The notes beneath the pieces are model-generated. The model worked only from the letters and a program-made list of their open reading frames with translations, did not search any database and was not told the origin of the DNA. From IMG/VR virus record IMGVR_UViG_3300017744_004210, positions 1-39,149 of that record: a stretch of 39,149 bases of DNA; one strand, given 5' to 3'. Both the position numbers and the translations under genes were made by a program. The stretch is from a virus. Below, one piece after another: positions 1 through 11,950 of this stretch. Each line of letters starts with the position of its first letter. The first letter of the stretch is position 1.

Positions 1-1421
1 CCAATATTAGTACCTCTAAATGGGTTAGCTGATATTAAATCAGATGAATTATATAGTTGAGTACTTAAGTTTTGGTTACCAGTAGAAGCATATTGATTAA
101 GACCTAATAGATCATTCATTGCTCTGTAGTGATAACCTGTGTAATCCCTAAGATCTAATCCTAATGAATATCTCATACTACCTTTCTGGATATTAAGCTT
201 AGAGATAGCTCCAATCCAGTTATGAGAGTTCATAGATGCTCTTCGTACTAATACGTTTCTAGCGTAATCTTTATCATTATGAGACCCTACTTCGTATTGT
301 GAGTTATGAGCAACTACTGCGTCATAGTTAATAGTACCATCAGCATTTCTAGTTCCTTTACCATCTTCTAGGTAGTGTTCTGTTAGATCCTTACGGAAAG
401 GTAACATATCGATAGATCCTTCATAATAGTTTCTACCTCTAGGACCTGTTCCTCCACCTCTTCCGGCTGAACCGTATACAGATGTATTTAATTGAACGTT
501 TTCTGAAATATCCCAATCCCAGTTTAGAGTAGCAAGAGGTTTATTGTAGAAGTTTCTACGTAAGTTATACTCACTACCATTTAACGTTCCACCGTTAGTA
601 TTCCATCTCTGATCAATACCGGCTTTACCAAAGTTCTGGTAATCTCTAATAGATACCCAAACATCTCTTTGATGATGCCATTGTCCAGCACCTAAAACTG
701 ATAAGTTTAGGCTATGTTTTGAACCTTCTGGTGTGTAACCAACAGATGCAAAATAAGTCCAACCAGCTCCTGAAGTATTGTAAATATATCCGTTACCAGA
801 CCATTTAGTCAATAAATAAGAAGAAGACCATCCTTTGTCATTTACTCCAGTATTGTAAAGAGCGGTTGTTTTAATGTAACCGTCGTTACCTACCATTTGA
901 GTAATAGCCCCACCTTGAGCTTTCTCTGCACTCTTAGTGAAAATAGAAACAGTTCCACCGACTGAAGGAACTGCTAACGATGTGGCACCAAGACCACGTT
1001 GGATTTGGATGCTAGACGTCACGTCTGTCAATCCTTGCCAGTTTGACCAATAAACCCAACCATTTTCCATATCATTAACGGGTTGACCGTTAATAAGGAA
1101 AGAAGTATTACGCTGATCGAAACCTCTTAAAGAAATACGACTATCACCGTATCCTCCTCCTTGTTTAGTAGCATACACTCCAGGTGTCTTGTTCATAATT
1201 TCTGGAAACTCTTGGTTTCCTACTTTAAGGAGTACTTCTTGTGCTGAGATCGTACTAACTGCAATTGGTGTCTCTCTTTCTTTTGCGACATCAATAACTC
1301 TAGACGATACAACAACTTCTTCTAAGTTTACATCTAAGATGGTCTTAGAATCAGTACTCGTTTCTTGAGCGTAAGCTCCAACTGCTAAAAACATTAACAG
1401 CACTGTAACGAGTTTTCTCAT
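1..1421 (-). CDS. TonB-dependent receptor, N-terminal part (runs off the left edge)
   Basis: The frame is open from an ATG at 1421 to the window edge, about 473 codons, and the C-terminus is missing. Residues 1-18 form a Sec signal peptide (MRKLVTVLLMFLAVGAYA, then Q), typical of Bacteroidota. A TonB-box-like stretch (LEEVVVSS, about 33-40) and a plug domain follow (NKTPGVYATKQGGG, RISLRGFDQRN, INGQPVNDMENG, GGTVSIFTK). After that come alternating aromatic/polar strands of an outer-membrane barrel, including GLDLRDYTGYHYRAMND. Such receptors import siderophores, vitamins or glycans using TonB energy and often serve as phage receptors. The gene starts 46 bases after a small phage ORF on the same strand, so it looks like part of the phage operon. 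A chimeric assembly cannot be excluded. Family call is firm; substrate and phage role are unknown. Confidence 0.9.
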   Translation of the reverse strand, partial: MRKLVTVLLMFLAVGAYAQETSTDSKTILDVNLEEVVVSSRVIDVAKERETPIAVSTISAQEVLLKVGNQEFPEIMNKTPGVYATKQGGGYGDSRISLRGFDQRNTSFLINGQPVNDMENGWVYWSNWQGLTDVTSSIQIQRGLGATSLAVPSVGGTVSIFTKSAEKAQGGAITQMVGNDGYIKTTALYNTGVNDKGWSSSYLLTKWSGNGYIYNTSGAGWTYFASVGYTPEGSKHSLNLSVLGAGQWHHQRDVWVSIRDYQNFGKAGIDQRWNTNGGTLNGSEYNLRRNFYNKPLATLNWDWDISENVQLNTSVYGSAGRGGGTGPRGRNYYEGSIDMLPFRKDLTEHYLEDGKGTRNADGTINYDAVVAHNSQYEVGSHNDKDYARNVLVRRASMNSHNWIGAISKLNIQKGSMRYSLGLDLRDYTGYHYRAMNDLLGLNQYASTGNQNLSTQLYNSSDLISANPFRGTNI

Positions 1422-1467
1422 TTTCGTTGATTTAGATTAAATTAAGGTTAAACATTAACATAACATT

Positions 1468-1581
1468 TTAGGCTACAGTAGTTGTCCATATCCTTTCATC
1501 AATAATGTAAGGAAATGAATTCGAACATTCAACTTTTTGTAGCTTTTCTTCTATAAGTTGAACTATTTCTGGTTTTGTCAT
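1468..1581 (-). CDS. Small hypothetical protein (37 aa), coupled to the nuclease gene
   Basis: A 37-codon ORF whose ATG overlaps the stop of the upstream nuclease gene as ATGA, suggesting translational coupling. It starts MTKPEIVQLIEEKLQKVE, which looks like one amphipathic helix, and ends IIDERIWTTTVA. I recognise no family. It fills most of the space between the nuclease and the TonB-dependent receptor gene. The coupling supports a real gene, but the length makes this uncertain. Confidence 0.45.
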   Translation of the reverse strand: MTKPEIVQLIEEKLQKVECSNSFPYIIDERIWTTTVA

Positions 1582-1943
1582 CCTTGAAATACTTTTTTCT
1601 TGCCACCATCGTAGACATAAGCGTGGCCATTTTCTAATAATAACTCATTTAGAGATTTCTTTTCTCCTTCTATAAAAATTTCTGCTAATACTCTTCCATA
1701 TTTACCCACTCCATATGATTGAATAGTAAACAGTCCATTATTTTTTTCTAAATATTCTGTAGTAAATGCAGTAGCAGCTAGACCTCTTATTTTTTCTTCT
1801 TTATCTCGAGTTCTTTTTTCCCAAGTATCAACTCCTTTGAACCTTAATCTTTGTTTAGTCCAAACGTTAAACCCAAGGTCTATCATAACATCGGCAGTGT
1901 CGCCGTCTACAACCCTTACTAATTTTGCTTTATACTTATACAT
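1578..1943 (-). CDS. Thermonuclease / SNase-like nuclease
   Basis: Staphylococcal-nuclease fold protein of about 121 aa that would cleave DNA or RNA phosphodiester bonds with calcium. Motifs from the ATG at 1943: VVDGDT near residues 11-16, RFKGVDTWE (34-42) holding the Arg, Asp and Glu that match R35, D40 and E43 of micrococcal nuclease, and GKYGR (80-84) with the second catalytic Arg. LNELLLENGHAYVY closes the fold. I prefer this ATG over an in-frame TTG at 1958 because it leaves only an 8-base overlap with the ferredoxin gene. No signal peptide is seen, so it probably acts in the cytoplasm, perhaps in host DNA breakdown or phage recombination. That role is inferred. Confidence 0.9.
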   Translation of the reverse strand: MYKYKAKLVRVVDGDTADVMIDLGFNVWTKQRLRFKGVDTWEKRTRDKEEKIRGLAATAFTTEYLEKNNGLFTIQSYGVGKYGRVLAEIFIEGEKKSLNELLLENGHAYVYDGGKKKVFQG

Positions 1944-2244
1944 TATATTGTAAGCCAAAAAAGTTATAATTTCTCTTTACGTATGTGTCAGTACCATCTT
2001 TTTCAATAGCCTCTTCTTCACTATCATAAATAGCTTCAACTGGACATTCCGGCAAACAAGCTCCACAGTCAATACATTCGTCTGGATTGATGTAAAGCAT
2101 ATCGGTAGGACCTATTTCCATACCTGATACTTCTTGACCTGCTCCATCAATATCTATAGGACCATGTATACAGTCAACTGGGCAAACTGCTACACAGGCA
2201 GTATCACAAGTTGCTTCACATGGTTTACCTATAATATAACTCAT
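1936..2244 (-). CDS. Ferredoxin with two [4Fe-4S] clusters
   Basis: A 102-aa dicluster ferredoxin. The first half has Cys9, Cys13, Cys17, Cys21 and Cys25 (PCEATCDTACVAVCPVDC). The second half has the classic CxxCxxCxxxCP at residues 57-68 (CIDCGACLPECP). It would carry low-potential electrons in the cytoplasm. The start overlaps the stop of the preceding 80-aa gene as ATGA, and the radical SAM enzyme QueE lies about 0.6 kb upstream in the same operon. QueE and its relatives need a reductant, so a QueE partner role is plausible but inferred. Redox support of host metabolism is the main alternative. All cluster cysteines are present, so it should be functional. Confidence 0.9.
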   Translation of the reverse strand: MSYIIGKPCEATCDTACVAVCPVDCIHGPIDIDGAGQEVSGMEIGPTDMLYINPDECIDCGACLPECPVEAIYDSEEEAIEKDGTDTYVKRNYNFFGLQYNV

Positions 2245-2483
2245 TTACCTACTGATGTTACACGTTTCATAAAATTATTTAATGCATCAGTTCTTTTTAA
2301 ACCTCTCATTACAGACTCTCTTACGTTTTGAGCTCCATAAAGATTAGATAAAATTTCTCCTAATGCATCAAGCTCATTTTCAGTAATTCCTCTTGAATCT
2401 GTTATAGATTCTAATAACTTAATTGAGTTATTGATTTCAGTTAACGAGAACTCACTTAATTTTCTTATTACTGGTAGTTTCAT
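2241..2483 (-). CDS. Hypothetical protein (80 aa)
   Basis: A small, largely helical protein of 80 aa (starts MKLPVIRKLSEFSLTEINNS) with a charged central region (SITDSRGITENELDALGEIL) and a C-terminal FMKRVTSVGK. I recognise no characterised family; similar short proteins of unknown function occur in T4-like phages as far as I recall. There is no signal peptide or membrane segment. It overlaps the ferredoxin start by four bases and the stop of the 70-aa gene by four bases, so the three are probably translated together. Confidence 0.7.
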   Translation of the reverse strand: MKLPVIRKLSEFSLTEINNSIKLLESITDSRGITENELDALGEILSNLYGAQNVRESVMRGLKRTDALNNFMKRVTSVGK

Positions 2484-2692
2484 TCTGCAAAATGTCTTTC
2501 TATGGTCTCTAATACGTCTTCAGCCTCGGCCAAAGCTACAATAGCTTCAGTTGCATTTTTATAGAAATCCTCTGTAGAGTGATCACCAATACCAGCAGGA
2601 TGTTGAGTTAGTAACTCTAGTGTGAGTAAAGCTTTTTCTCTGTTTGCTTCGAATTCCTTCTTAAGCATTTTAATCACCGTGTATTGTGCCAT
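2480..2692 (-). CDS. Hypothetical helical protein (70 aa)
   Basis: A 70-aa acidic, mostly helical protein (starts MAQYTVIKMLKKEFEANREK; ends AEAEDVLETIERHFAE). Family not recognised. It is coupled through ATGA to the downstream 80-aa gene, and its start lies inside the end of the 56-aa ORF upstream, so it belongs to the same run of small genes between QueE and the ferredoxin. It shows no membrane segment and no cysteines. Confidence 0.65.
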   Translation of the reverse strand: MAQYTVIKMLKKEFEANREKALLTLELLTQHPAGIGDHSTEDFYKNATEAIVALAEAEDVLETIERHFAE

Positions 2693-2840
2693 CTTTTTCT
2701 CTAATTTTTATTAATAATTCTGTTAATTTTTCTAAACTGTATATTGCATTAGGGGCATCGCAATACTCCTGACAGCATATACCTAAATTACCGTGTATAA
2801 CTGATAGATGCTCTTCTATTTCGTTCCACGTATCTTCCAT
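2670..2840 (-). CDS. Small cysteine-containing hypothetical protein (56 aa)
   Basis: A 56-codon ORF starting with the ATG immediately after the QueE stop and running to TAA at 2670, overlapping the next gene by 23 bases. It begins MEDTWNEIEEHLSVIHGN and holds three clustered cysteines (ICCQEYC, residues 21-27) and one His nearby. The cluster could bind a metal but is too small to assign. Coding is supported by the tight packing and by the lack of another explanation for these 150 bases. Confidence 0.55.
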   Translation of the reverse strand: MEDTWNEIEEHLSVIHGNLGICCQEYCDAPNAIYSLEKLTELLIKIREKDGTIHGD

Positions 2841-3617
2841 TTATACTTCTCTTTCAGTATTAAACGCCATAATATGTGCTCTACCAGTAAATCTATATCC
2901 TTTATCTCTAACAAAGTCCATAACAACTGGGTAGCTTTCCATTAAAGATTCTCTATCATCACCTGCAGGCATACACCAAACTTTTTCATTAGGTATCTCT
3001 AACTCTTCTAAGAATTTATAAACTTCACCATAAATCCTTAAATCTTTATCTAATACAGGTTTAATATGATAATCCTTATGATACTCTATTGACTTTTTTA
3101 TAGCATCTTTATTAAGTCTAAACTTATTATGCTGTTTAATCATTTTTTCATCTACAATCTTACCTTGAGGAGTTTCTACTCCTAGTTGAGGAATAGAGTT
3201 ACTAAACTTAGGACTAATAGAAAGTAAATCTATAGGATAGTCAGTAGGTAAAAAATGACTACCTTCATTCTCTATTGTAATAAAGATATCTCTTTCATTA
3301 GCAAAATGTGTAAGTTCATTTACAAGTTTACCATGCATAGTAGGAGAACCACCAGTTAACATCATTTCTGATATATGAGGATTATCATCATATGCTTTAA
3401 TAATGTCATTAAAATTAAACTTACCTTTTTCTGGATGAATACTTGTATACCAGCTATCACACCAGCCACCTTCACCGAAGTAACACCTATGAGTGCAACC
3501 AGTAGTTCTAATAACAATAGTAGGAAAACCTTGTCTTGAACCTTCCGATTGTACTGCAGTATATACTTCTACTATTGGTAAATTTTTATTGTAGTCTTCT
3601 ATTCTACCTAGGCTCAT
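2841..3617 (-). CDS. queE: 7-carboxy-7-deazaguanine synthase (radical SAM)
   Basis: QueE converts 6-carboxytetrahydropterin to 7-carboxy-7-deazaguanine with SAM and a [4Fe-4S] cluster, in the preQ0 pathway. The 258-aa protein has the family start EVYTAVQSEGSRQGFPT (17-33), a radical SAM cysteine motif at Cys41, Cys45 and Cys53, the MMLTGGSP glycine-rich SAM motif near 90, and a TIENEGS segment near 135. The cysteine spacing is CX3CX7C, wider at the last step than the usual CX3CX2C; variants with insertions are known in QueE. The gene overlaps queD by 14 bases, so the two enzymes that act in sequence are made together. Family confidence is high; the spacing is worth noting. Confidence 0.9.
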   Translation of the reverse strand: MSLGRIEDYNKNLPIVEVYTAVQSEGSRQGFPTIVIRTTGCTHRCYFGEGGWCDSWYTSIHPEKGKFNFNDIIKAYDDNPHISEMMLTGGSPTMHGKLVNELTHFANERDIFITIENEGSHFLPTDYPIDLLSISPKFSNSIPQLGVETPQGKIVDEKMIKQHNKFRLNKDAIKKSIEYHKDYHIKPVLDKDLRIYGEVYKFLEELEIPNEKVWCMPAGDDRESLMESYPVVMDFVRDKGYRFTGRAHIMAFNTEREV

Positions 3618-4071
3618 ATATTGCTGAGTTTTTACCGTGTTCTCTAAATTCTACTTTTGATATTTTTACTCTACCTTGAGTTTCTTCTTTTATAAAGGGA
3701 TTTACTTTATCGTAAATAAATTGAGAAAATCTTTCAGCTCCTGTAGCAGGTACTATTCTTACTTGAGCTACACCTGCTTCATTCATTTTAAGAAAAGATT
3801 CTTTAAAAGGATCATCTTCGGCTACTACAAAAGTATGATCAAACATGTAATCAAACCATGCTTTAGGAGACATACCGTCTATAGTACCTTTAGCTCTTTT
3901 CATACCTCCGAAGTCCCATACCCAGTTACGTTCATCCAAATCTCCTTCAAACCATAATTTAAATGATATACCATACCCATGTAAATACCTACAGTGAGTA
4001 GTTTCGGCTTTCCATTGACGGAATACAGTCGAGAAACCGTCAAATACTTTCGTTGATGTAAATTTTCCCAT
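3604..4071 (-). CDS. queD: 6-carboxytetrahydropterin synthase (QueD / PTPS family)
   Basis: QueD turns 7,8-dihydroneopterin triphosphate into 6-carboxytetrahydropterin, the QueE substrate. In this 155-aa protein I see His26, Cys27 (probable catalytic Cys) and CRYLHGYG (27-34), then VWDFGGMK (51-58), FDHT with the Asp-His pair (77-80), and ATGAERFSQFIYD (109-121) with the conserved Glu. The usual zinc motif HGH reads HGY here (His31, Tyr33). I recall HGY in a divergent branch of the family, so the protein is probably active, but one zinc ligand differs from the E. coli enzyme. It ends in TAG, showing that this genome uses amber as an ordinary stop. Confidence 0.88.
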   Translation of the reverse strand: MGKFTSTKVFDGFSTVFRQWKAETTHCRYLHGYGISFKLWFEGDLDERNWVWDFGGMKRAKGTIDGMSPKAWFDYMFDHTFVVAEDDPFKESFLKMNEAGVAQVRIVPATGAERFSQFIYDKVNPFIKEETQGRVKISKVEFREHGKNSAIYEPR

Positions 4072-4349
4072 TATACCAGTTCTTCGTAGATACCTACTAC
4101 TTCTGATAATATAAGAACTACTGCGCAGGCTACCAACATATCGGCAGCTAATAATACGTACCCTGCTATTCTAACTCCAGACTTAATAAAAGATACTATT
4201 TGATGCTTTTTAGCATCTGGGTGATTTGTAGGTTGTGAAGGACTTTTAGCTTTAGAACGTCTACTGTAGAGATACTCTTCGTTCCTTAATTTGCGAGAAT
4301 CAACGTCATAGAGGTCATCCTCGATTTCTTTTAAATTTAAATTTACCAT
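4071..4349 (-). CDS. Hypothetical membrane-anchored protein (92 aa)
   Basis: A 92-aa protein with an acidic then strongly basic, Ser/Lys/Pro-rich N-terminal half (residues 1-50) and a hydrophobic C-terminal half (about 57-85, GYVLLAADMLVACAVVLIL) that would make one or two membrane helices. Family not recognised. Its stop shares a base with the queD start (TAATG), so it heads the que cluster. About 80 bases separate it from thyA, and an AT-rich stretch there may hold its promoter. Confidence 0.65.
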   Translation of the reverse strand: MVNLNLKEIEDDLYDVDSRKLRNEEYLYSRRSKAKSPSQPTNHPDAKKHQIVSFIKSGVRIAGYVLLAADMLVACAVVLILSEVVGIYEELV

Positions 4350-4428
4350 TTTTCGTGTTTTTAAAGTGGTGCTACGACACTATAGTCATATTAATAAATA
4401 TAATAAAAAATATTTTAATAGCCAACTT
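4350..4428 (-). promoter_or_regulatory. AT-rich intergenic stretch with possible promoter for the queD-queE group
   Basis: This 79-base gap is one of few real gaps here. Read on the minus strand it has an AT-rich run containing TTATATTTATTAA, which loosely resembles the CTTATATTATAA element seen before the replication genes. A short inverted repeat, GTGcTAcGACAC, follows it. The thyA side ends TAAAAGTTGG, and a very similar string follows the stop at 12753. Promoter function is a guess from position and composition. Confidence 0.25.
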
Positions 4429-5223
4429 TTAATTTGATAAAGATGCTTTGATTATAGGGTGAGATTCATAATTAATAAGTTCTACATCGAAATCTCCTCT
4501 ATATATATCATAGCAACTAAGCTTAGCTTCCGGAAGGTCGTAAGAATATCTACTTATTTGTTCCTCTGCTTGATCTAAATGATTAGAATATAGATGAACA
4601 TCACCAAAGTTTCCTATCAACTCTCCAGGCTCTAATCTAGTCTCTTTACATAGTAATAACAGTAACAGACCGTAACTACTAATATTAAACGGTACTCCTA
4701 AGAATAGGTCAGCACTTCTTTGATTCCACATAAGAGAGAGCTTACCATCTGCTACATAACATTGGAATGAATAATGGCAAGGAGGAAGAGTCATCTTATC
4801 TAAATCTTCTACATTCCAACTATCAACTAAATGTCTTCTACCATCTGGATTACTAATAATACCTGTAATAAGGTTCTCTAGCTGATCAATACCGTTTATA
4901 TCTCTCCATTGCTTACCGTAGATAGGTCCTAAATCTCCATCTGTTCTACCAGACTTTTCGTAATCACCATCCCATATCTTGCAATTGTTATCTTGAAGGT
5001 ACTTTATATTAGTATCTCCTCTAAGGAACCATTTTAACTCAGTAACCATAGTCTTGAAAGCAACCTTCTTAGTGGTTAAGATAGGAAAGCCTTCTGACAT
5101 ATCATGTCTGATTGTTGATCCGAATATAGATTTAGTACCAGTGCCTGTTCTATCGGTTTTATTTACACCCACAGCAAGAACTCTTCTAAGAAGTTTCTGA
5201 TAATCATTATCTAAGCTATTCAT
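4429..5223 (-). CDS. thyA: Thymidylate synthase (ThyA)
   Basis: ThyA methylates dUMP to dTMP using methylene-tetrahydrofolate. The 264-aa length matches the family. Motifs: DRTGTGT (24-30, phosphate-binding Arg), GFPILTTKK (45-53), LRGDTN (67-72), LGPIYGKQWR (98-107), LPPCH with catalytic Cys149, and NQRSADLFLGVPFNISSY with the Asn that selects uracil over cytosine. By these residues it is a normal dTMP synthase rather than a dCMP hydroxymethylase, although a dUMP hydroxymethylase cannot be ruled out by eye. It lies between the carbamoyltransferase group and the que genes and serves dNTP supply together with NrdAB and thioredoxin. Confidence 0.96.
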   Translation of the reverse strand: MNSLDNDYQKLLRRVLAVGVNKTDRTGTGTKSIFGSTIRHDMSEGFPILTTKKVAFKTMVTELKWFLRGDTNIKYLQDNNCKIWDGDYEKSGRTDGDLGPIYGKQWRDINGIDQLENLITGIISNPDGRRHLVDSWNVEDLDKMTLPPCHYSFQCYVADGKLSLMWNQRSADLFLGVPFNISSYGLLLLLLCKETRLEPGELIGNFGDVHLYSNHLDQAEEQISRYSYDLPEAKLSCYDIYRGDFDVELINYESHPIIKASLSN

Positions 5224-5225
5224 AC

Positions 5226-5342
5226 TTAAAAATTTTTATAAGTAAAAGGATCTCTCTTTTTTAATTCAGCTAGCTTTTTTTTATATATTTTATTTCTTTT
5301 ATATTCAGCAATTTTAGACTTTATCCATTTTATTATTTTCAT
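5226..5342 (-). CDS. Small basic helical protein (38 aa) coupled to carbamoyltransferase 1
   Basis: A 38-codon ORF whose ATG overlaps the carbamoyltransferase stop (ATGA) and that ends three bases before thyA starts. The product (starts MKIIKWIKSKIAEYKRNK) has about 16 Lys/Arg and looks like one long basic helix ending in DPFTYKNF. From memory, tiny Lys-rich ORFs of this kind accompany carbamoyltransferase genes in other phages, but I cannot check that. No function can be assigned. Coupling and placement argue that it is real. Confidence 0.55.
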   Translation of the reverse strand: MKIIKWIKSKIAEYKRNKIYKKKLAELKKRDPFTYKNF

Positions 5343-6979
5343 TTTTTTTGTATTAAAAAGTTATTGATTACTAAAAAGTCTATATTTGAATTTAAATATC
5401 TCTTAATAGCTTGTTCAGGAGTTAATGTTATAGTCTGATCTTTAAGATTAAATGATGTATTTAAAACTACAGGTATTCCTGATTGACTTCCAATTTGAGT
5501 AATAAGTTTATGAAATTTTTCGTTTTGCTTTTTTGAAACTGTCTGAACTCTACATGTATTATCTATATGGGTAGCCGAAGGAATAAGTTTAGTTTTACTT
5601 TTCATTACTTTAGACATATATGGTGATATCTCTTCAGAATCAAAAAATTGATAAAATCTTTCTTCAGTAATAGCAGGGGCAAAGGGTCGAAATCCTTCTC
5701 TTTTCTTTATAACTAAATTTAATTTTTCTCTCATTGATGGATCTCTAGGGTTAGCTAGTATACTTCTATTGCCTAAAGCTCTTGCTCCGAACTCCATCCT
5801 GCCTTGGAACCATGCAATTATATTCCCACCATTTATTAATTTAGCAACCTTATTAATAAGAGCATTTTCATTAAGTTTAAAAATATAAAGATTTGGTTTA
5901 TACTTATTAACTACACTCTTAACAACTTTATCTGAAAATTCAGGTCCTAAGTATGGATCAATTTTTATTTTACTATTTAAACAAGCTCCTATTGCTGACC
6001 CTGCATCTGAAGGAGCAAAAGGTATATAAATTGACTTAAAAAACTTATATGCTAAACTGTTAGCTTTACCATTATAAGCACAACCTCCTGATATGCATAA
6101 GTTATCAGAACCTGTAATATTTTTAGCTGTTTTTACTAACTTTAAAAATTGATATTCGTAAAGTTTTTGTAAAGCTGCAGCTAAATTTTTATGATCTTGA
6201 GTAACTTTTTCTTCAGGGAGTCTAGGGGGTAAATTAAGTAATTTGCATAAACGTCTGTTAAACATTATCTTATCTGAATATTCCCAGGTAAAGTATTTTT
6301 GATTTATAGTAAATTTGTTAGAAGTATTTTCAAACACAGATAATAATTCAGTAAAATATACTCTACTATCACCGTATGGAGCAAGTCCCATTACTTTATA
6401 TTCACCTTCATTAGGTTTAAATCCTAAATATGCAGTAATAGTTGAATATAGCATTCCTAAAGAGTTAGGAAAATCTATAGATATTTTTTTCTCTATTTTA
6501 TTACCTCTACCGTGGGAGATAGTAGTTGTTTCCCACTCTCCAACACCGTCGACAGTGAGTATTGCTGAATTACTATAATCACTAGTGTAATAAGAGTAAG
6601 CAGCGTGACTATCATGATGATCGTTAAAATAGATTTTGCCGGTGTAGCCCATAGATTCGAGAATATCTTTCGGATTTTGGGACTTTTTGAATTTTTTATA
6701 CTTCCTGTTAAGAAAAAACGTTTTGAAGGGTTTTTTAGCAAACGTAGTGCGGACTCTGCTATCTTTTTTTTCTGGATTTTCATACCAATATACCTCATTT
6801 ATATCATAAATAGTTTTACCAGCTTCTGAAAGTACATATCGTATAGCATTTTTAGGAAAACTACTATCATGTTTAATCCCTGTAAATCTCTCTTCTTCTG
6901 CAGCAGCTACTACTTTATTATCTATAATTAGTGCAGCAGCCGAGTCGTGGTAAAAAGCTGATATCCCTAATTTAATCAT
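5339..6979 (-). CDS. Carbamoyltransferase 1, NodU/CmcH/TobZ family
   Basis: Enzymes of this family move a carbamoyl group from carbamoyl phosphate, via carbamoyl-AMP, to a hydroxyl on a sugar, antibiotic or, in some phages, possibly a nucleobase. Counting from the ATG at 6979 (546 aa): Kae1-like N-domain start KLGISAFYHDSAAALI (3-18), metal site NDHHDSHAA (119-127) with VDGVGEWE (143-150), GGCAYN (298-303), and APSDAGSAIGA (322-332). The YrdC-like C-domain follows with FGARALGNRSIL (397-408) and FRPFAP (430-435). An upstream in-frame start at 7072 would add 31 residues that look non-coding and would overlap the DUF2061 gene, so I use 6979. The start overlaps the DUF2061 stop (ATGA). The acceptor is unknown. 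Confidence 0.92.
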   Translation of the reverse strand: MIKLGISAFYHDSAAALIIDNKVVAAAEEERFTGIKHDSSFPKNAIRYVLSEAGKTIYDINEVYWYENPEKKDSRVRTTFAKKPFKTFFLNRKYKKFKKSQNPKDILESMGYTGKIYFNDHHDSHAAYSYYTSDYSNSAILTVDGVGEWETTTISHGRGNKIEKKISIDFPNSLGMLYSTITAYLGFKPNEGEYKVMGLAPYGDSRVYFTELLSVFENTSNKFTINQKYFTWEYSDKIMFNRRLCKLLNLPPRLPEEKVTQDHKNLAAALQKLYEYQFLKLVKTAKNITGSDNLCISGGCAYNGKANSLAYKFFKSIYIPFAPSDAGSAIGACLNSKIKIDPYLGPEFSDKVVKSVVNKYKPNLYIFKLNENALINKVAKLINGGNIIAWFQGRMEFGARALGNRSILANPRDPSMREKLNLVIKKREGFRPFAPAITEERFYQFFDSEEISPYMSKVMKSKTKLIPSATHIDNTCRVQTVSKKQNEKFHKLITQIGSQSGIPVVLNTSFNLKDQTITLTPEQAIKRYLNSNIDFLVINNFLIQKK

Positions 6980-7167
6980 TTGTAAAATTTTATCCAGATT
7001 CTTTCGTAACTGAAGTATCCTATGGTTTTTAATACCGTGTCTATACTTCCTACTGCTAATCCAAATTTCCAATCACCTGAAACTGCCCATCCTGTAAATA
7101 TAGTAATTGAAGTAGCTATAATTCTCCATATAAAAGTTTTTACTAACGTTTTTTTTATACTACTCAT
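6976..7167 (-). CDS. DUF2061 membrane protein
   Basis: A 63-aa protein matching the DUF2061 pattern: KTLVKTFIWRIIATSITIFT (6-25), GDWKFGLAVGSIDTVLKTIG (31-50) and YERIWIKF near the end. Two membrane helices are predicted. The family is poorly understood; members are often found beside sulfate-activation or sugar-phosphate genes, and an APS-kinase-like gene lies 1.2 kb upstream here. It is coupled by ATGA to carbamoyltransferase 1, so it may hold that enzyme or its substrate at the membrane. That role is inference. Confidence 0.85.
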   Translation of the reverse strand: MSSIKKTLVKTFIWRIIATSITIFTGWAVSGDWKFGLAVGSIDTVLKTIGYFSYERIWIKFYK

Positions 7168-7171
7168 ATTA

Positions 7172-7675
7172 TTAAATTAAATGCTTAGTTTTATAGTCAG
7201 TGATTAAAAAATGTAAGCTCCATCTTTTACCTTTTTTTACTTCTTCTACTCCATGAGAATCATCAAAACCGTGAGTATATAATCTACCTTTAAGATAGTC
7301 TACTTTTTTGTCTTTTATAAAAAATTCTCCACCTTCAAACTCTTTTTTCTCACTTAATTCTACACCCCCGTAAAAATGAAATGGAAGTTCTTTGGATAGA
7401 GTATTATTCCATATACCGTCCGTATGTTTTAAAAAAAAGTCCCCTTGTTCATACTTCAATATAGTAACTCTTTCTAATAGAGAATACTTTTTACCTATAT
7501 TTTTTTTAATAAAATCATCTATTAAGTTATATAGCCATGAATTAGTATCTATTTCATGATAGTTTTTTTGCTTTCTAATATTACTCTCCTGTAAAAAAAT
7601 TTTAGATTCATAAAGATTTTTAATTTTTCTACATTCAGGTTCAGACAAAATAAATTTATCAAAAGTACCTATCAT
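7172..7675 (-). CDS. 2-oxoglutarate/Fe(II) oxygenase (prolyl-4-hydroxylase-like)
   Basis: A 167-aa double-stranded beta-helix oxygenase. Iron ligands: HTD (His84, Asp86) and distal His141 in DDSHGVEEVKKGKRWSL. Arg151, ten residues later, would hold 2-oxoglutarate. Such enzymes hydroxylate proteins, small molecules, lipids or nucleic acids, and the substrate cannot be read from sequence. It starts one base from the nucleotidyltransferase stop (shared base) in the accessory block. A second, only distantly similar oxygenase lies at 8800-9363. Confidence 0.88.
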   Translation of the reverse strand: MIGTFDKFILSEPECRKIKNLYESKIFLQESNIRKQKNYHEIDTNSWLYNLIDDFIKKNIGKKYSLLERVTILKYEQGDFFLKHTDGIWNNTLSKELPFHFYGGVELSEKKEFEGGEFFIKDKKVDYLKGRLYTHGFDDSHGVEEVKKGKRWSLHFLITDYKTKHLI

Positions 7676-8040
7676 TATTCTCTGTTAATAATTGTGCCAT
7701 TTTTTCTCATCTGTTCTCTAATTTTAGTAGCAGATATTTCTTTTATATCTTGAGGGGGTACATGCTCTATAACTTCATAACCCACACCTCTACCGTAATT
7801 AATAGATTCGATATCTGGTACTATTGTGATTTTTATTCTACCTTCTTCTAAAAGGTCTTTTAACTCTTCAGATAGGTTCATAAGAACTTCATGAGGAGTC
7901 CAAGGCTGTTTTTCGTTAGGTTCTACATCTCTAATAGCTACCCATACGTTCTTACCTTCTTTTAATCTTTGGTCGATCAACCATCTATGGCCTTCATGCC
8001 ATGGTTGCCACCTTCCTATAAATAAACTATATGCCTTCAT
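7675..8040 (-). CDS. Nucleotidylyltransferase, cytidylyltransferase-like (HxGH family)
   Basis: A 121-aa Rossmann-like nucleotidyl transferase. The N-terminus SLFIGRWQPWHEGH places the HxGH nucleotide site at His15 and His18. The C-terminal KEISATKIREQM is the matching ISxTxxR motif. Relatives make CDP-glycerol, ADP-heptose, NAD or CoA intermediates by joining a nucleotide to a phosphate. It overlaps the HAD gene by 14 bases and shares the operon with a P-loop kinase, so it probably activates a phosphorylated sugar or similar compound for the nearby glycosyltransferases. Substrate unknown. Confidence 0.88.
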   Translation of the reverse strand: MKAYSLFIGRWQPWHEGHRWLIDQRLKEGKNVWVAIRDVEPNEKQPWTPHEVLMNLSEELKDLLEEGRIKITIVPDIESINYGRGVGYEVIEHVPPQDIKEISATKIREQMRKNGTIINRE

Positions 8041-8365
8041 CTCTTTTTACATTTATTGCAATTGCTCGATCGCCAGGTTTTTTAGGGTCCATATCATTTA
8101 TAAGATATCTAGGTCCTCTTTCAATTTGCATTATTAATTTGTGGTAAGGTACACCATTTTTAGCTAATTCATGTTCAGTATGCTCTCTTAAATATTCCGG
8201 ACGAGCTGTAGTAAGTATAATCATATGACCTTCGTCATTAACCTGCTGTAAGTACTGTTTAGTACTCTTAATAACCTGGGCTTCAGAAGTTTCATAGGTT
8301 TCAAACTTTCTATATATAAATATCGTTCCGTCAATATCAACGAAGTATGTGTTTTTCTTATCCAA
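8027..8365 (-). CDS. HAD-superfamily phosphatase-like protein (TTG start)
   Basis: A 112-aa HAD-fold protein with motif I FVDIDGTIF (8-16; nucleophile Asp10, acid Asp12), motif II in ILTTARPE (50-57) and a short C-terminal motif (LINDMDPKKPGDRA). It is near the minimum size for a HAD hydrolase and lacks a cap, so it would suit a larger substrate or a small phosphate ester. The start is a TTG at 8365 inside the end of the kinase gene (TTGGATAA); no ATG lies near enough to keep motif I. It follows the kinase and precedes the nucleotidyltransferase, suggesting one phosphate-handling pathway. Confidence 0.82.
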   Translation of the reverse strand: MDKKNTYFVDIDGTIFIYRKFETYETSEAQVIKSTKQYLQQVNDEGHMIILTTARPEYLREHTEHELAKNGVPYHKLIMQIERGPRYLINDMDPKKPGDRAIAINVKRDEGI

Positions 8366-8798
8366 TATATTTTTTTATTTTTTTTAATGATTCATCTTCG
8401 CTGTCTAAAGTAGTATCTACTTCTAAATAATCTATTATAGGTTTTTGAAAATTTAAAACGTGATAATGTTCTCTTCCTCTAGTTTTATAGCTTTTATCAT
8501 AATAACAGTAAAACTCCCACATAAACCATTTACCGTCTTTAAACTCTTCTCTTTGGTCTAAATAAGGAGTTACTAATGATACAATAACGTCTTTGCCTTG
8601 ATTATGTAAATAAAGTGCTATTTTCTGAGCTGCATCTATATTAGCTATTCTGCCTTTCATAGAATAATCTTTGTTATCAAATAGCAGTCTCATCTCATCG
8701 CCATCTATTCTATAAGCGTGAGGTAAAACTTCTTCTTTTAACTTATCAGCTAAAACTGTTTTGCCAGATCCAGGTTGGCCTATAAACCAGTATATCAT
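8358..8798 (-). CDS. P-loop kinase resembling adenylylsulfate (APS) kinase
   Basis: A 146-aa kinase with Walker A GQPGSGKT (7-14), then AYRIDGDEMRLLF (28-40), matching the DGDnvR motif of CysC-type kinases, and DYSMKGRIANIDAAQKIALYLH followed by VIVSLVTPYLDQRE. The pattern is that of APS kinase, which phosphorylates adenylylsulfate to PAPS. Related phage kinases act on other hydroxyls, so true APS activity is uncertain. No ATP sulfurylase is seen in the window. It overlaps the HAD gene by 8 bases and is two bases from the 2OG oxygenase gene. Confidence 0.83.
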   Translation of the reverse strand: MIYWFIGQPGSGKTVLADKLKEEVLPHAYRIDGDEMRLLFDNKDYSMKGRIANIDAAQKIALYLHNQGKDVIVSLVTPYLDQREEFKDGKWFMWEFYCYYDKSYKTRGREHYHVLNFQKPIIDYLEVDTTLDSEDESLKKIKKYIG

Positions 8799-8799
8799 A

Positions 8800-9363
8800 T
8801 TATATAGTTTTTTTCTTAAGTGAATTAGCTTCTATAAAAATAGTGCAACTCCATCGCTCTCCTAAAGTTATAGGAGTTACCCAATGTAGTTTACCTTGAC
8901 TAAATATAGTTACATTTCCAATTTCTTGACTTATTTTAATATCATTTTCATCGTGTACCCATAATTCTCCTCCTTTATACTCATCTGTTGAACTAAATTG
9001 TATTAGGACTGTATAATGTCTTGCTCTCTTTATGGTTTTTTTATCCTTAGAAAGTACATCATCTATATGCGGCTTAAATTCTAATCCTTTTGTATATTTT
9101 TGAATAATAAATTCCCATCCTAAACTTACGATTGGTAAATTTAACTCATTAACCCAATCCATTATCCTTTTATTAATCCAATCGTATTTAATATCTGAAG
9201 TCCATGGTAGATGTTCAGCTAAATTATGTCCTCCTTGCGGATCGTGAATTGCATCGTTAACATCAGGATGGTATGTACCGATTACTCTATCTTGCAAGTT
9301 AGTAACATACCCTCGTATTTTATCAATCTCTAATGAATTAAATAAAACTTTCTGATGTAACAT
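8800..9363 (-). CDS. 2-oxoglutarate/Fe(II) oxygenase 2
   Basis: A 187-aa oxygenase with iron motif PHIDD (His99, Asp101), strand GGELWVHDEND (131-141), and distal LHWVTPITLGERWS with His160 and Arg170 ten residues later for 2-oxoglutarate. The layout is that of prolyl-hydroxylase-like 2OG-Fe(II) enzymes common in T4-like marine phages. It differs enough from the oxygenase at 7172-7675 that a recent duplication is unlikely. It sits between a kinase and a glycosyltransferase, so a role in modifying a sugar or lipid is possible but not shown. Confidence 0.88.
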   Translation of the reverse strand: MLHQKVLFNSLEIDKIRGYVTNLQDRVIGTYHPDVNDAIHDPQGGHNLAEHLPWTSDIKYDWINKRIMDWVNELNLPIVSLGWEFIIQKYTKGLEFKPHIDDVLSKDKKTIKRARHYTVLIQFSSTDEYKGGELWVHDENDIKISQEIGNVTIFSQGKLHWVTPITLGERWSCTIFIEANSLKKKTI

Positions 9364-9371
9364 TGTTAATG

Positions 9372-10097
9372 TTATATTGTTGATTTTAATTTAGTAGTAT
9401 TTTCCCATCCTATATGTCTTACATAACCATTCTCAAAAATAGCAGCTTTGAATCCTAAGTCTCCATATTTTTTACTTATTGCAAGTTCTATTTCTAAAAG
9501 AGATTCCGGAATATTAACTAATTTATCTGATATATGTTTAGTAAAAGGACTTATAGTTTTATAATCTTTATATCTACGCAGTCCAGGATTAAAAGTAAAA
9601 CCAGACCACCCTTTAAAATCTTCGAGATAAAAGAATTTGCTAACAAAAAGCGGTTGATTATCTTCTAAATAAGTAACAAACTTATAGTCTTTTCCTACTG
9701 GGTGATCCATAGTATCATTTAGTTCTCTTAACCAGACTGTAATCAATTTAGAGTCTACATCCATCAATTTAAATGAATGTTCTATGAAATATGACTGGTA
9801 AAATTTCCAATCGTCCTCCAAGTGAAAAATATACTGGGTCTCAACTAAATTATAAGCATAATCTATACTTTTTATTTGACCTTGTCTTTTTTTATTAAAA
9901 ATTAAACTATAATCATACTCTTTTAATAATGAACTTAAAATTTTATTTGCTTCTTCTTTAAATTTTTTATCTCCACTATCATCTATTAATAAAAACTTAG
10001 TTATAGGGTAAGTATTAAATTTGTTAAAACTTTCTATAGTTCTAGTTAGTAAGTCTAATCTACCACAGCTTGTTAATACGACGGTAACTTCTTTCAT
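9372..10097 (-). CDS. Glycosyltransferase, family 2-like (GT-A)
   Basis: A 241-aa GT-A enzyme: N-terminal VTVVLTSCGRLDLLTRTIESF (4-24), FLLIDDSGD (35-43) for nucleotide-sugar binding, RQGQIKSIDYAYN (71-83), and metal-binding FHLEDDW (91-97). The C-terminal third (FSG/GWSGFTFNPGLRRYKDY region) is less typical. It probably transfers a sugar from a nucleotide donor in the cytoplasm. It overlaps the next gene upstream by four bases. The acceptor is unknown; the target could be phage DNA, host glycan or virion protein. Confidence 0.82.
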   Translation of the reverse strand: MKEVTVVLTSCGRLDLLTRTIESFNKFNTYPITKFLLIDDSGDKKFKEEANKILSSLLKEYDYSLIFNKKRQGQIKSIDYAYNLVETQYIFHLEDDWKFYQSYFIEHSFKLMDVDSKLITVWLRELNDTMDHPVGKDYKFVTYLEDNQPLFVSKFFYLEDFKGWSGFTFNPGLRRYKDYKTISPFTKHISDKLVNIPESLLEIELAISKKYGDLGFKAAIFENGYVRHIGWENTTKLKSTI

Positions 10098-10840
10098 ATA
10101 AAAGGACGGGTATCTTTTAAGTTACTAAACTGATCTAATAATTCCAACTTTCTAGGTCCTCCTAAATGATCAAAGTTATTAAAATTATTATCTAAAAAAT
10201 AAAAAGGAGTAATATCTATACTATCTAAAAATTGATAAGTAAACATACAACACCCGGCTGAGCCAAATAGAACTTCCCTTTTATTTATTTTATATTTTTT
10301 ATCTATAAATGAGGAAAAAAATAATTGAGTATTTCTATATTCTTTGATGAGTTTATTTTTTAAAGAATCGTCATTAAAGTACATCAAACCTAAATTATTA
10401 ATAAATTTACTTTTTCCTTTCCAATAGTTTAATTCATTATCTATACCCTCTTTTTGCATTAAGAGTTTCATTTTAAAAGTATTTTCGCATTCTAGTTTAC
10501 ATTCAAAACCTATTTTAAAATCAGAGGGTACCTTTAATTCTTTTTTAATAAAAAGATCACCATCGGTAATAATAAATTCACCGTCGATAGTCTCAGCGGC
10601 GTCAAACTTTAAATCGTCTAAAAAAATAAATTCTTTTTTAGGAGCTGGTATCAGCTTTACATTTAAGTCTTGAAAAAGAGGAAAATTGTATACGTCTGTA
10701 AATACTACCTTTTCGTATAAACTCGGAGCTTCTTTAATAGATTTTTTAAATAAAAACTGTATATATTTATGAGAAGCTAAAGTATTTTTATTCCAACTTC
10801 CTTTTTTAAATCTATCGCTATAAGTCCATACTAACTTCAC
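10094..10840 (-). CDS. Putative glycosyltransferase-like protein (248 aa, GTG start)
   Basis: A 248-aa protein starting at GTG (GTGA overlap with the stop of the secreted-protein gene). I do not place it in a named family with certainty. It looks like a GT-A protein: MKLVWTYSDRFKKGSWN opening, FTDVYNFPLF, then EFIITDGDLFI (88-98) with a DxD-like Asp93/Asp95 pair, and a LFGSAGCCMFTYQFLD segment near 190-205. It is coupled to the family-2 glycosyltransferase, supporting a joint sugar-transfer role. Function is inferred from context and one motif. Confidence 0.6.
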   Translation of the reverse strand: MKLVWTYSDRFKKGSWNKNTLASHKYIQFLFKKSIKEAPSLYEKVVFTDVYNFPLFQDLNVKLIPAPKKEFIFLDDLKFDAAETIDGEFIITDGDLFIKKELKVPSDFKIGFECKLECENTFKMKLLMQKEGIDNELNYWKGKSKFINNLGLMYFNDDSLKNKLIKEYRNTQLFFSSFIDKKYKINKREVLFGSAGCCMFTYQFLDSIDITPFYFLDNNFNNFDHLGGPRKLELLDQFSNLKDTRPFI

Positions 10841-11166
10841 TGTATTCTAGTCCAAAGCCATGCTCTAACTGAGTTTGGTTTATTAATAACCATCGTTTCG
10901 TTACCAATAAATAAACCTAATCTATATGCATCTTCAGTATCATATCTATTAATATGCATATCTCCGTTATCCATTGTAATTTCACCAGTGGCTAATACTT
11001 TAGTTGCACTTTTTCTTACAAATACTACTTTCTCAGCCTTTCTACTAATTACCAATACTTCCCCATCTAAGTTATACCATGCACCTAGTGCATCATAGGG
11101 TACCTCCTCTTGCCCGAAGGTAAGAGAAGATACTACTAATGATATAAAAAGTAAAAACTTACGCAT
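10837..11166 (-). CDS. Small exported protein (109 aa) with signal peptide
   Basis: MRKFLLFISLVVSSLTFG-Q is a clear Sec signal peptide (1-18) of the Bacteroidota type. The mature 90 aa look like a small beta-rich domain with ALGAWYNLDGEVLVISRKAEK (26-46), a GEITMDNGDMHINRY stretch and VRAWLWTRIQ at the end. No cysteine follows the cleavage site, so it is not a lipoprotein; it should be periplasmic. No family is recognised. It overlaps the queC stop by 8 bases. An exported phage protein could act on the host envelope or block superinfection; both are guesses. Confidence 0.75.
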   Translation of the reverse strand: MRKFLLFISLVVSSLTFGQEEVPYDALGAWYNLDGEVLVISRKAEKVVFVRKSATKVLATGEITMDNGDMHINRYDTEDAYRLGLFIGNETMVINKPNSVRAWLWTRIQ

Positions 11167-11950
11167 ATTGTGCTAATAGTTTTTCGACATGTGCTTTCGC
11201 AACACTATATTCAACTTCTCCAGTTTCATCCTCATATTGTACAGGGTCATCCACACCCAAGTTGATGAATGCTTCAATCCTTTCAACAGATGATGCTGAT
11301 TTATAGTCGCTATTACCGCTAGGATAGGGCTTGTAAGAAGTATTAGTACGTTTGTAAACTTCATCAAACTCAATTCCGAGCTCGTTAACCAATCTTTGTC
11401 CATCTTTTAAAATTCCAAGTTTATCAGTATCTAAGTAAGGAGTAGCATAATTTACTTTATCTGCATCCCAGTTACCTAATCTAAAGGCATAATCATCAGC
11501 ATCTCTAAACTCCTGTCTACAGTCTGGATATATTGCATGATCTCCTGCATGTATACCTAGAGCAATATCAGTCTCTAAACCATTTGCATTAGCTTCAGAC
11601 AAAGCAACTGCTTGAACTATAGAAGCAAATATTTTATTTCTATTGGGTACTACAGTAGCTTTCATATTATCTTCTTCATAATGACCTTCCGGTACATCAT
11701 CTCCTCCAGTTACTAATGCTGAGTTAAGAAGATTAACTAATCCGTCAAGTTTAATAACTTGATATTTAATATTCTGACCATTAGCATTTAAATAATCTAC
11801 TAATGATTGAGCTCTTTCGAGCTCTACTCTATGCTTCTGACCATAATCAAAAGATAAAGCAGTTACATTATCATACTCAGATAAACATCTAAGTAATAGA
11901 GTTGAGGAGTCCATCCCTCCTGAAAGACTAACTACGACATTTTTCGCCAT
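11159..11950 (-). CDS. queC: 7-cyano-7-deazaguanine (preQ0) synthase, lacking the usual zinc cysteines
   Basis: QueC converts 7-carboxy-7-deazaguanine to preQ0 using ATP and ammonia. The 263-aa protein has the PP-loop SLSGGMDSS (8-16), ALSFDYGQKHRVEL (31-44), VVPNRNKIFASIVQAVAL (100-117) and GIHAGDHAIYPDCRQEF (132-148), all typical. The C-terminal zinc site, normally four cysteines (SCY...CGxCxxC), reads TNTSYKPYPSGNSDYKSASS (202-221): the cysteine positions hold Tyr206, Asp215, Ser218 and Ser221. The only cysteines left are Cys22 and Cys144. The gene is 7 kb from queD/queE. Catalytic parts look intact, but the loss of zinc is unusual. Confidence 0.9.
   Translation of the reverse strand: MAKNVVVSLSGGMDSSTLLLRCLSEYDNVTALSFDYGQKHRVELERAQSLVDYLNANGQNIKYQVIKLDGLVNLLNSALVTGGDDVPEGHYEEDNMKATVVPNRNKIFASIVQAVALSEANANGLETDIALGIHAGDHAIYPDCRQEFRDADDYAFRLGNWDADKVNYATPYLDTDKLGILKDGQRLVNELGIEFDEVYKRTNTSYKPYPSGNSDYKSASSVERIEAFINLGVDDPVQYEDETGEVEYSVAKAHVEKLLAQYA

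What the first reader, a model, noticed from the sequence alone, without database searches (positions are those of the whole stretch)
1..1421. A TonB-dependent receptor gene in a phage operon
An outer-membrane nutrient receptor with a full signal peptide and plug lies on the same strand, 46 bases after a small gene coupled to the phage nuclease. Phages use such receptors to enter cells but rarely carry one. It might replace the host receptor late in infection (superinfection exclusion or decoy) or raise uptake of iron or glycans. The gene is cut at the window edge, so its completeness is unknown.
Basis: partly seen in the sequence, partly recalled or inferred. Interest (0 to 1): 0.78.

Follow-up and report, generated by a model that had tools for sequence, protein, structure and literature searches.

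The report
Phage-borne nucleic-acid uptake gene cluster
Marine phages carry their own outer-membrane import pump together with nuclease and nucleotide-kinase genes, which suggests that an infected bacterium is made to collect DNA or nucleotides from outside the cell as building material for new viruses.

Summary
A TonB-dependent receptor (TBDR) gene runs off the window edge. A 91-kb viral contig, 99.9% identical over 11.4 kb, completes it (824 aa, intact) and continues with phage-type genes, so it is not a chimera. It is not a one-off: 422 viral stretches encode relatives. Four of 30 records searched carry the receptor together with a T4-type capsid and terminase. Phages exchanged this family with their hosts repeatedly and keep it under purifying selection.

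The receptor's most specific neighbours are an S1/P1 nuclease with an export signal and a nucleoside/nucleotide-type kinase. Of 38 viral contigs found with this nuclease, 30 carry this receptor up to 4 kb upstream and two carry an unrelated TBDR instead. Upstream there is sometimes a lipoprotein DNA/RNA endonuclease, ribonucleotide reductase or IMP dehydrogenase. Some hosts keep the homologue beside a nuclease and a locus resembling one essential for DNA uptake in Riemerella.

Best reading: a phage-encoded module for scavenging extracellular nucleic acid or nucleotides (probability 0.6). The substrate is untested; NAD-precursor salvage is a main rival. Phage TBDRs have been reported before; my searches showed no report of this module.

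The parts
3..1421 (-). TonB-dependent receptor, first 473 codons (signal-peptide-like start, TonB-box-like segment, plug, first barrel strands); complete as 824 aa in L002:10001-12475
   Evidence: AlphaFold model pLDDT 73.9, closest solved folds PqqU/YncD, FhuA, FecA
1468..1581 (-). 37-codon ORF between nuclease and receptor; perhaps not a gene
   Evidence: also in L002 and, diverged, in L007 of seven loci scanned
1578..1958 (-). SNase-type nuclease (TTG start at 1958, or ATG at 1943), no signal peptide seen; the same place holds a lipoprotein DNA/RNA endonuclease in several related phages
   Evidence: PF00565 1.4e-9; phrog_452 endonuclease 2.7e-41 for the L002 copy; gene order

Best explanation
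The receptor is the outer-membrane part of a phage-encoded module that scavenges extracellular nucleic acid or its breakdown products during infection. Proposed order of events: a surface or secreted endonuclease (an Endonuclease_NS lipoprotein in some relatives) cuts DNA or RNA outside; the TBDR, driven by the host's TonB-ExbBD, takes oligo- or mononucleotides into the periplasm; the exported S1/P1 nuclease trims them to nucleosides and phosphate; an inner-membrane carrier (host, or perhaps the phage's small membrane protein) passes nucleosides on; the phage kinase re-phosphorylates them for ribonucleotide reductase, thymidylate synthase or IMP dehydrogenase. Shown here: gene identities, export signals (by eye), S1/P1 metal-site conservation, physical linkage in both directions, receptor replacement with partners kept, purifying selection. 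Inferred: substrate, direction of transport, expression during infection, benefit to the phage.
For: (1) S1/P1 profile against viral contigs: 38 loci; this receptor lies up to 4 kb upstream in 30, an unrelated BtuB-like TBDR in two more (L241, L242), two start at the contig edge, four have neither; kinase within 1.4 kb downstream in 31. (2) Kinase profile: of 64 examined loci with at least 2 kb upstream, 56 have this receptor within 3 kb; three of the other eight have the BtuB-like TBDR. (3) Receptor side, 62 distinct contigs with at least 3 kb downstream: kinase within 3 kb in 39, S1/P1 in 19 (all 19 also with kinase), same strand. (4) Upstream, of 75: Endonuclease_NS 10, SNase 3, IMPDH 12, RNR large subunit 14; 10 of 11 Endonuclease_NS members show a lipobox-like start in the stretch printed. 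(5) Residues matching the S1/P1 zinc ligands (positions recalled) are invariant in 15 sequences; PDB S1/P1 match 3.6e-40. (6) Kinase: AAA_28, PHROG thymidylate kinase 1.1e-11, nearest folds NadR kinase domain, thymidylate and deoxynucleoside kinases. (7) Hosts: S1/P1 next to the receptor in L083 and L086; Exo_endo_phos_3 nuclease within 6 kb in 12 of 55 host loci, with a barrel/DUF5689 pair like the one essential for natural transformation in Riemerella (PMC8459023). (8) dN/dS 0.06-0.14 among seven phage copies.
Against: No substrate has been tested. Of 50 distinct receptor contigs with both flanks, 13 have none of the scored partners, and most lack S1/P1. Four S1/P1 loci have no TBDR found, one of them (L254) with a close S1/P1 (83%). 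Endonuclease_NS lies next to the receptor in only 9 of 63 viral loci. The window's SNase shows no export signal. A strong terminator-like hairpin follows the receptor in L002, so it may not be co-transcribed with S1/P1. The closest host orthologues (L082, L084) sit in neighbourhoods without these nucleases; 41 of 55 host loci have none of those sought within 6 kb. The kinase matches NadR best, which allows an NAD-precursor role. Many TBDR-carrying phages are related, so loci are not independent.
Confidence: 0.6

Rival explanations
1. NAD-precursor salvage: the receptor takes up NAD-, NMN- or nicotinamide-riboside-like compounds; the kinase is a ribosylnicotinamide kinase; the small membrane protein is a half-size carrier; NAD synthase completes the path.
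For: NadR kinase domain is the best structural match (Z 16.5, 154 aligned, rmsd 2.3, against 14.4 for thymidylate kinase); an NAD-synthase cluster lies between receptor and kinase in L048, L049 and L056 and after the receptor in L075 (PF02540 9.6e-50 for the L048 copy).
Against: S1/P1 and Endonuclease_NS have no place in it; RNR and IMPDH are commoner neighbours; PHROG names the kinase a thymidylate kinase; the small membrane protein matches no Pfam family.
Confidence: 0.15
2. General nutrient or cofactor AMG (iron, B12 or other): the receptor keeps uptake of a limiting nutrient going after host shutdown; neighbours only reflect the phage's metabolic gene block.
For: TBDRs classically import such compounds (established knowledge); the phage encodes iron-type enzymes (RNR small subunit, 2OG oxygenases, ferredoxin); the substitute TBDR is nearest to B12-receptor models.
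Against: No NCBIfam cut-off reached by either TBDR; viral S1/P1 is linked to a TBDR in 32 of 38 loci and the linkage survives replacement of the receptor.
Confidence: 0.15
3. Superinfection exclusion: receptor made late as decoy or replacement, with periplasmic and surface nucleases destroying incoming phage DNA.
For: The S1/P1 and Endonuclease_NS partners look exported; TBDRs are phage receptors (for example FhuA of T5, also solved with the exclusion lipoprotein Llp, titles).
Against: Does not explain kinase, RNR or IMPDH partners; a decoy need not keep plug and TonB-box-like segment.
Confidence: 0.07
4. Host contamination or chimeric assembly.
For: Close host homologues exist (up to 74%); receptor GC is somewhat above the rest of the window.
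Against: Same junction in three further contigs; 3 of 1,343 ORFs in 80 viral loci match host loci only; four records carry receptor, Gp23 and terminase together.
Confidence: 0.02

Closest known systems
TBDR (SusC) reported in marine megaphage Mar_Mega_1 and in LR745206 (PMC9723777, passages)
   Same: A phage-encoded TonB-dependent receptor treated as an auxiliary metabolic gene
   Different: There read as carbohydrate uptake; the LR745206 hit here is 31.7% over 45% of the query; no nuclease or kinase module described in the passage seen
Flavobacteriaceae DNA-uptake pair RA0C_RS04915/RA0C_RS04920 of Riemerella (PMC8459023, passages)
   Same: Outer-membrane barrel plus DUF5689 partner needed for natural transformation; in 12 host loci the phage receptor's homologue sits 0.5-2.6 kb from an Exo_endo_phos_3-type nuclease with a DUF5689 protein farther on, and in 11 of them a second barrel lies between
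   Different: The phage receptor is the neighbour of that barrel, about 20-24% identical to it (26% over a short stretch in L115), and has a plug; identity of the host pair with the Riemerella genes is inferred from domains and order
Low-phosphate-induced TBDTs and EndA nucleases of Flavobacterium johnsoniae (PMC8115612, passages)
   Same: TBDTs co-induced with phosphodiesterases and secreted nucleases for phosphorus supply
   Different: Host regulon, separate loci; homology to the phage receptor not tested
Class I (S1/P1) nucleases in extracellular purine salvage of Leishmania (PMC13232948, abstract)
   Same: Same nuclease family, secreted, feeding purine salvage
   Different: Eukaryote, no TBDR

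Membership tests
TonB-dependent receptor/transporter | N-terminal plug domain | tested here: met
   Pfam Plug 1.5e-13; 30 of 30 records over cut-off
TonB-dependent receptor/transporter | Outer-membrane beta-barrel of TBDR type | tested here: met
   Model pLDDT 73.9, pTM 0.76; Foldseek to PqqU, FhuA, FecA with E 3.5e-34 or better
TonB-dependent receptor/transporter | TonB box and TonB-dependent transport | not testable with these tools
   TonB-box-like 'LEEVVV' seen by eye; dependence needs experiment
SusC/D glycan importer | SusD lipoprotein encoded alongside | tested here: not met
   No ORF of 300 aa or more within 2 kb of the receptor in L002; other loci not scanned for SusD
Siderophore, heme or B12 receptor equivalogs | NCBIfam curated cut-off | tested here: not met
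   Best 82 bits against 324; substitute TBDR best 166 against 600
S1/P1 nuclease (partner gene) | Family match and metal-site residues | tested here: met
   PF02265 1.1e-65; invariant W, H and D positions in A1; PDB 3.6e-40; ligand identities recalled
NadR ribosylnicotinamide kinase (partner gene) | Substrate specificity | tested here: inconclusive
   Fold Z 16.5 to NadR, 14.4 to thymidylate kinase; sequence profile finds no convincing PDB relative
Phage nutrient-uptake AMG | Gene in phage genome, homologous to host gene, under selection | tested here: met
   a nutrient-uptake function itself is untested
Superinfection exclusion factor | Blocks infection by other phages | not testable with these tools
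   No assay available

The most novel reading that the evidence does not exclude
Phages repeatedly equipped themselves with a TonB-driven nucleic-acid import line: the infected cell takes in DNA or RNA fragments, perhaps from lysed neighbours or rival virions, through a phage-made outer-membrane transporter and converts them to precursors for phage DNA with phage-made nucleases and kinase. This would make extracellular nucleic acid a virus-controlled nutrient and would define a TBDR family whose substrate is nucleic acid or its fragments.
Probability: 0.35. Interest if true: 0.9.

Novelty: new variant of a known kind. Interest (0 to 1): 0.72.

Why it matters
Phages are usually thought to draw nucleotides from the host genome and de novo synthesis (established knowledge). 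A widespread phage-encoded route from outside the cell would change budgets of phosphorus and nucleotides in infected Bacteroidota, would give a candidate substrate to a TBDR family found in many marine Flavobacteriia, and is directly testable by isotope labelling. It also questions the default reading of phage TBDR genes as carbohydrate or iron uptake genes.

Tried and rejected
Chimera or host contamination: rejected. Substrate by curated family: no NCBIfam cut-off reached. Substrate by solved relative: phmmer found only chance-level PDB matches; the profile's best hits, SusC homologues, align only to the N-terminal domain and plug. SusD partner: none in L002. Cultured phage with the module: S1/P1 and the small membrane protein have no match in 50,697 phage records; the wider kinase family occurs in 68 of them, all under 60% identity, so only the subfamily searched is TBDR-linked. 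Endonuclease_NS as a specific partner: rejected as specific, 9 of 63 viral loci (with L006 and L073). Carrier family for the small membrane protein: no Pfam match in four copies. Faecal TBDR hit MT837128: unannotated and marked UNVERIFIED, left aside. PMC9878933 (passages): only a reference title matched.

Corrections to my own counts: S1/P1 queries included a fused S1/P1-kinase ORF (L020) and inflated S1/P1 to 41; one search repeats it without that query (19). The 97 receptor loci include three contigs twice (L280=L066, L281=L078, L287=L072); one search recounts the 94 distinct ones. One search showed host-only neighbours in 11 of 80 viral loci because only loci L001-L017 served as the viral reference and the phage-like contig L100 counted as host, against all viral loci and without L100, finds 3 ORFs in 3 loci. 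Limits: the kinase test used the best 80 of 152 loci, which favours the TBDR-linked subfamily; receptor scans kept the best 80 of 422 and of 432; the S1/P1 scan reaches only sequences with one of two peptide patterns; a search for other TBDRs in all viral contigs was not made.

Full report
What is in the window. The ORF 1421..3 on the minus strand encodes the first 473 residues of a TonB-dependent receptor (Pfam Plug 1.5e-13). The window is a 39,149-base virus record. Viral contig L002 (91,139 bases) is 99.947% identical over window 1-11421. In it the receptor is complete at 824 aa and is followed, same strand, by an 81-aa ORF, a 263-aa S1/P1 nuclease, a 72-aa small membrane-type protein, a 177-aa P-loop kinase and further genes. 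SNase lies 140-160 bases before the receptor in L002, L007 and L008.

Are these phages? In 80 viral loci, 3 of 1,343 ORFs match host loci only, in 3 loci (an earlier count with a narrower viral reference gave 11 loci). Most host loci show the reverse pattern; one MAG contig (L100) looks like phage (5 of 7 ORFs viral-only). Of 30 records searched whole, four (89, 191, 253 and 276 kb) carry both T4-type major capsid Gp23 and a terminase besides the receptor; the other 26 contigs show neither family. The 89-kb record (L009) has a receptor about 90% identical to this one. In the window, PHROG matches include a UvsX-like recombinase, a weak DNA polymerase match and ribonucleotide reductase, but none of the ten proteins tested matched a structural family.

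Spread and origin. 422 viral stretches encode relatives of the receptor (best 80 kept). Host homologues reach 74% in marine Flavobacteriales. A tree of 101 receptors mixes 56 viral and 45 host rows and needs 15 host/virus changes, at least 8 forced by starred branches (quick search, long host branches present, unrooted, so the direction of each transfer is not shown). Some viral rows group with Balneolaceae. Forms of about 824-845 aa and about 900 aa occur in both phages and hosts; the longer one has an extra N-terminal domain in the alignment (CarboxypepD_reg-like in host L090), so the short window form is not a phage truncation. dN/dS among seven close phage copies is 0.06-0.14.

The partners. 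Pfam identifies the partners as Endonuclease_NS (1.8e-19), S1-P1_nuclease (1.1e-65), AAA_28 kinase (9.7e-12) and IMPDH (1.5e-94). Ten of 11 Endonuclease_NS cluster members show a lipobox-like start in the 45 residues printed, and the S1/P1 proteins have hydrophobic starts that look like export signals (by eye). From the receptor side, in distinct contigs: of 62 with at least 3 kb downstream, the kinase lies within 3 kb in 39 and S1/P1 in 19 (all 19 with the kinase as well). Of 75 with at least 2 kb upstream, Endonuclease_NS lies within 2 kb in 10, SNase in 3, IMPDH in 12 and RNR large subunit in 14. Of 50 with both flanks, 37 have at least one of these and 13 have none. Presence of S1/P1 and of the kinase each changes 9 times on the receptor tree (44 viral rows), so the association is not one inherited block only. 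In the window itself a thymidylate synthase gene lies 3 kb from the receptor (4429-5223, PF00303 3.2e-93).

Reciprocal tests. An S1/P1 profile found 38 viral loci. The receptor lies up to 4 kb upstream in 30 of them (29 within 1.8 kb), the kinase within 1.4 kb downstream in 31. Of the eight without it, two start at the contig edge (L164, L233). Four have no receptor of this family within the fetched flank and no long same-strand ORF nearby (L253-L256); L254 is a plain exception, since its S1/P1 is 83% identical to a module copy. L242 carries instead a 658-aa BtuB-like TBDR, then a 285-aa gene, the small membrane protein, S1/P1 and kinase, and L241's contig has the same TBDR. A kinase profile gave 152 relatives, best 80 examined: 56 of 64 with at least 2 kb upstream have the receptor within 3 kb. 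Of the other eight, three have the BtuB-like TBDR (L331, L340, L342) and two more have the receptor farther off in the fetched stretch (L336, L338). One of these is a 253-kb Gp23-positive phage with an Endonuclease_NS gene about 1.4 kb before the BtuB-like TBDR (L360). That TBDR was found in three viral contigs, all three with the kinase, two with S1/P1. A non-orthologous receptor in the same place is the strongest single argument that the partners act together.

The enzymes. The S1/P1 profile matches solved S1/P1 nucleases (3.6e-40), and the W, H and D positions that I recall as zinc ligands are invariant in 15 sequences. The kinase model (pLDDT 86) is closest to the NadR kinase domain (Z 16.5), then thymidylate and deoxynucleoside kinases (14.4 and below); PHROG calls it thymidylate kinase. 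The receptor model (pLDDT 73.9) resembles PqqU/YncD, FhuA and FecA, and no curated substrate family fits.

The hosts. In Candidatus Arcticimaribacter contigs L083 and L086 an S1/P1 nuclease follows the receptor directly, and L086 has Endonuclease_NS 3 kb on. In 12 of 55 host loci with adequate flanks an Exo_endo_phos_3-type nuclease lies within 6 kb of the homologue, with a DUF5689 protein farther on; in 11 of these a second barrel lies between. In L141, the copy tested, that barrel has a CarboxypepD_reg-like domain (below Pfam's cut-off) and the DUF5689 protein a lamin-tail domain. A barrel with such a domain followed by a DUF5689 protein is reported essential for natural transformation in Riemerella anatipestifer (PMC8459023, passages); orthology with the host pair here is inferred. 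That second barrel is only about 20-24% identical to the phage receptor. In 41 of the 55 host loci, the closest ones included, none of the proteins sought lies within 6 kb.

Mechanism and rivals. I take nucleic-acid or nucleotide scavenging as most likely (0.6): shown are identities, linkage, replacement and selection; export signals are by eye; inferred are substrate, transport and benefit. NAD-precursor salvage (0.15) is favoured by the NadR-like fold and by an NAD-synthase gene between receptor and kinase in L048, L049 and L056. A general nutrient AMG (0.15) and exclusion (0.07) explain fewer of the partners.

What is known. Mar_Mega_1 was reported with a TBDR read as SusC for carbohydrate uptake (PMC9723777, passages). 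PMC6302217 (passages) lists TBDRs in reconstructed hot-spring phage genomes. PMC8289736 (passages) treats marine DNA degraders; the term TonB does not occur in its main text. F. johnsoniae induces TBDTs and secreted nucleases under low phosphate (PMC8115612, passages). S1/P1-type nucleases serve purine salvage in Leishmania (PMC13232948, abstract). The listings of searches of the open PMC library showed no phage module of this kind; most subscription papers and preprints are not covered.

Noticed in passing
window 2841-3617, 3604-4071, 11159-11950; L002:16225-16938: Radical-SAM (below cut-off), PTPS/QueD-like, QueC and GTP cyclohydrolase I genes: a likely 7-deazaguanine set, perhaps DNA modification.
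   Followed up: partly
window 5339-7072 and 14441-16144: Two carbamoyltransferase-like genes in one phage contig, with glycosyltransferase-like genes near.
   Followed up: no
window 1936-2244: Small 4Fe-4S ferredoxin-like gene overlapping the SNase ORF.
   Followed up: no
window 7172-7675 and 8800-9363: Two 2OG-Fe(II) oxygenase-like genes.
   Followed up: no
L002:12478-12499: Strong terminator-like hairpin with T-run directly after the receptor stop, between receptor and S1/P1 gene.
   Followed up: no
L020:4916-6265: S1/P1 nuclease and kinase read as one 449-aa ORF; a real fusion or a sequencing indel.
   Followed up: no
L019/L342/L360 (same 253-kb contig): One Gp23-positive phage carries two different TBDRs: this family at 22 kb without scored partners, a BtuB-like one at 233 kb with Endonuclease_NS and the kinase.
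   Followed up: partly
L100: A contig binned into a Crocinitomicaceae MAG looks like phage: 5 of 7 ORFs match viral loci only.
   Followed up: no
L018, L023, L045 and related loci: GroEL- and GroES-like genes close to the receptor in a large phage group (read by eye).
   Followed up: no
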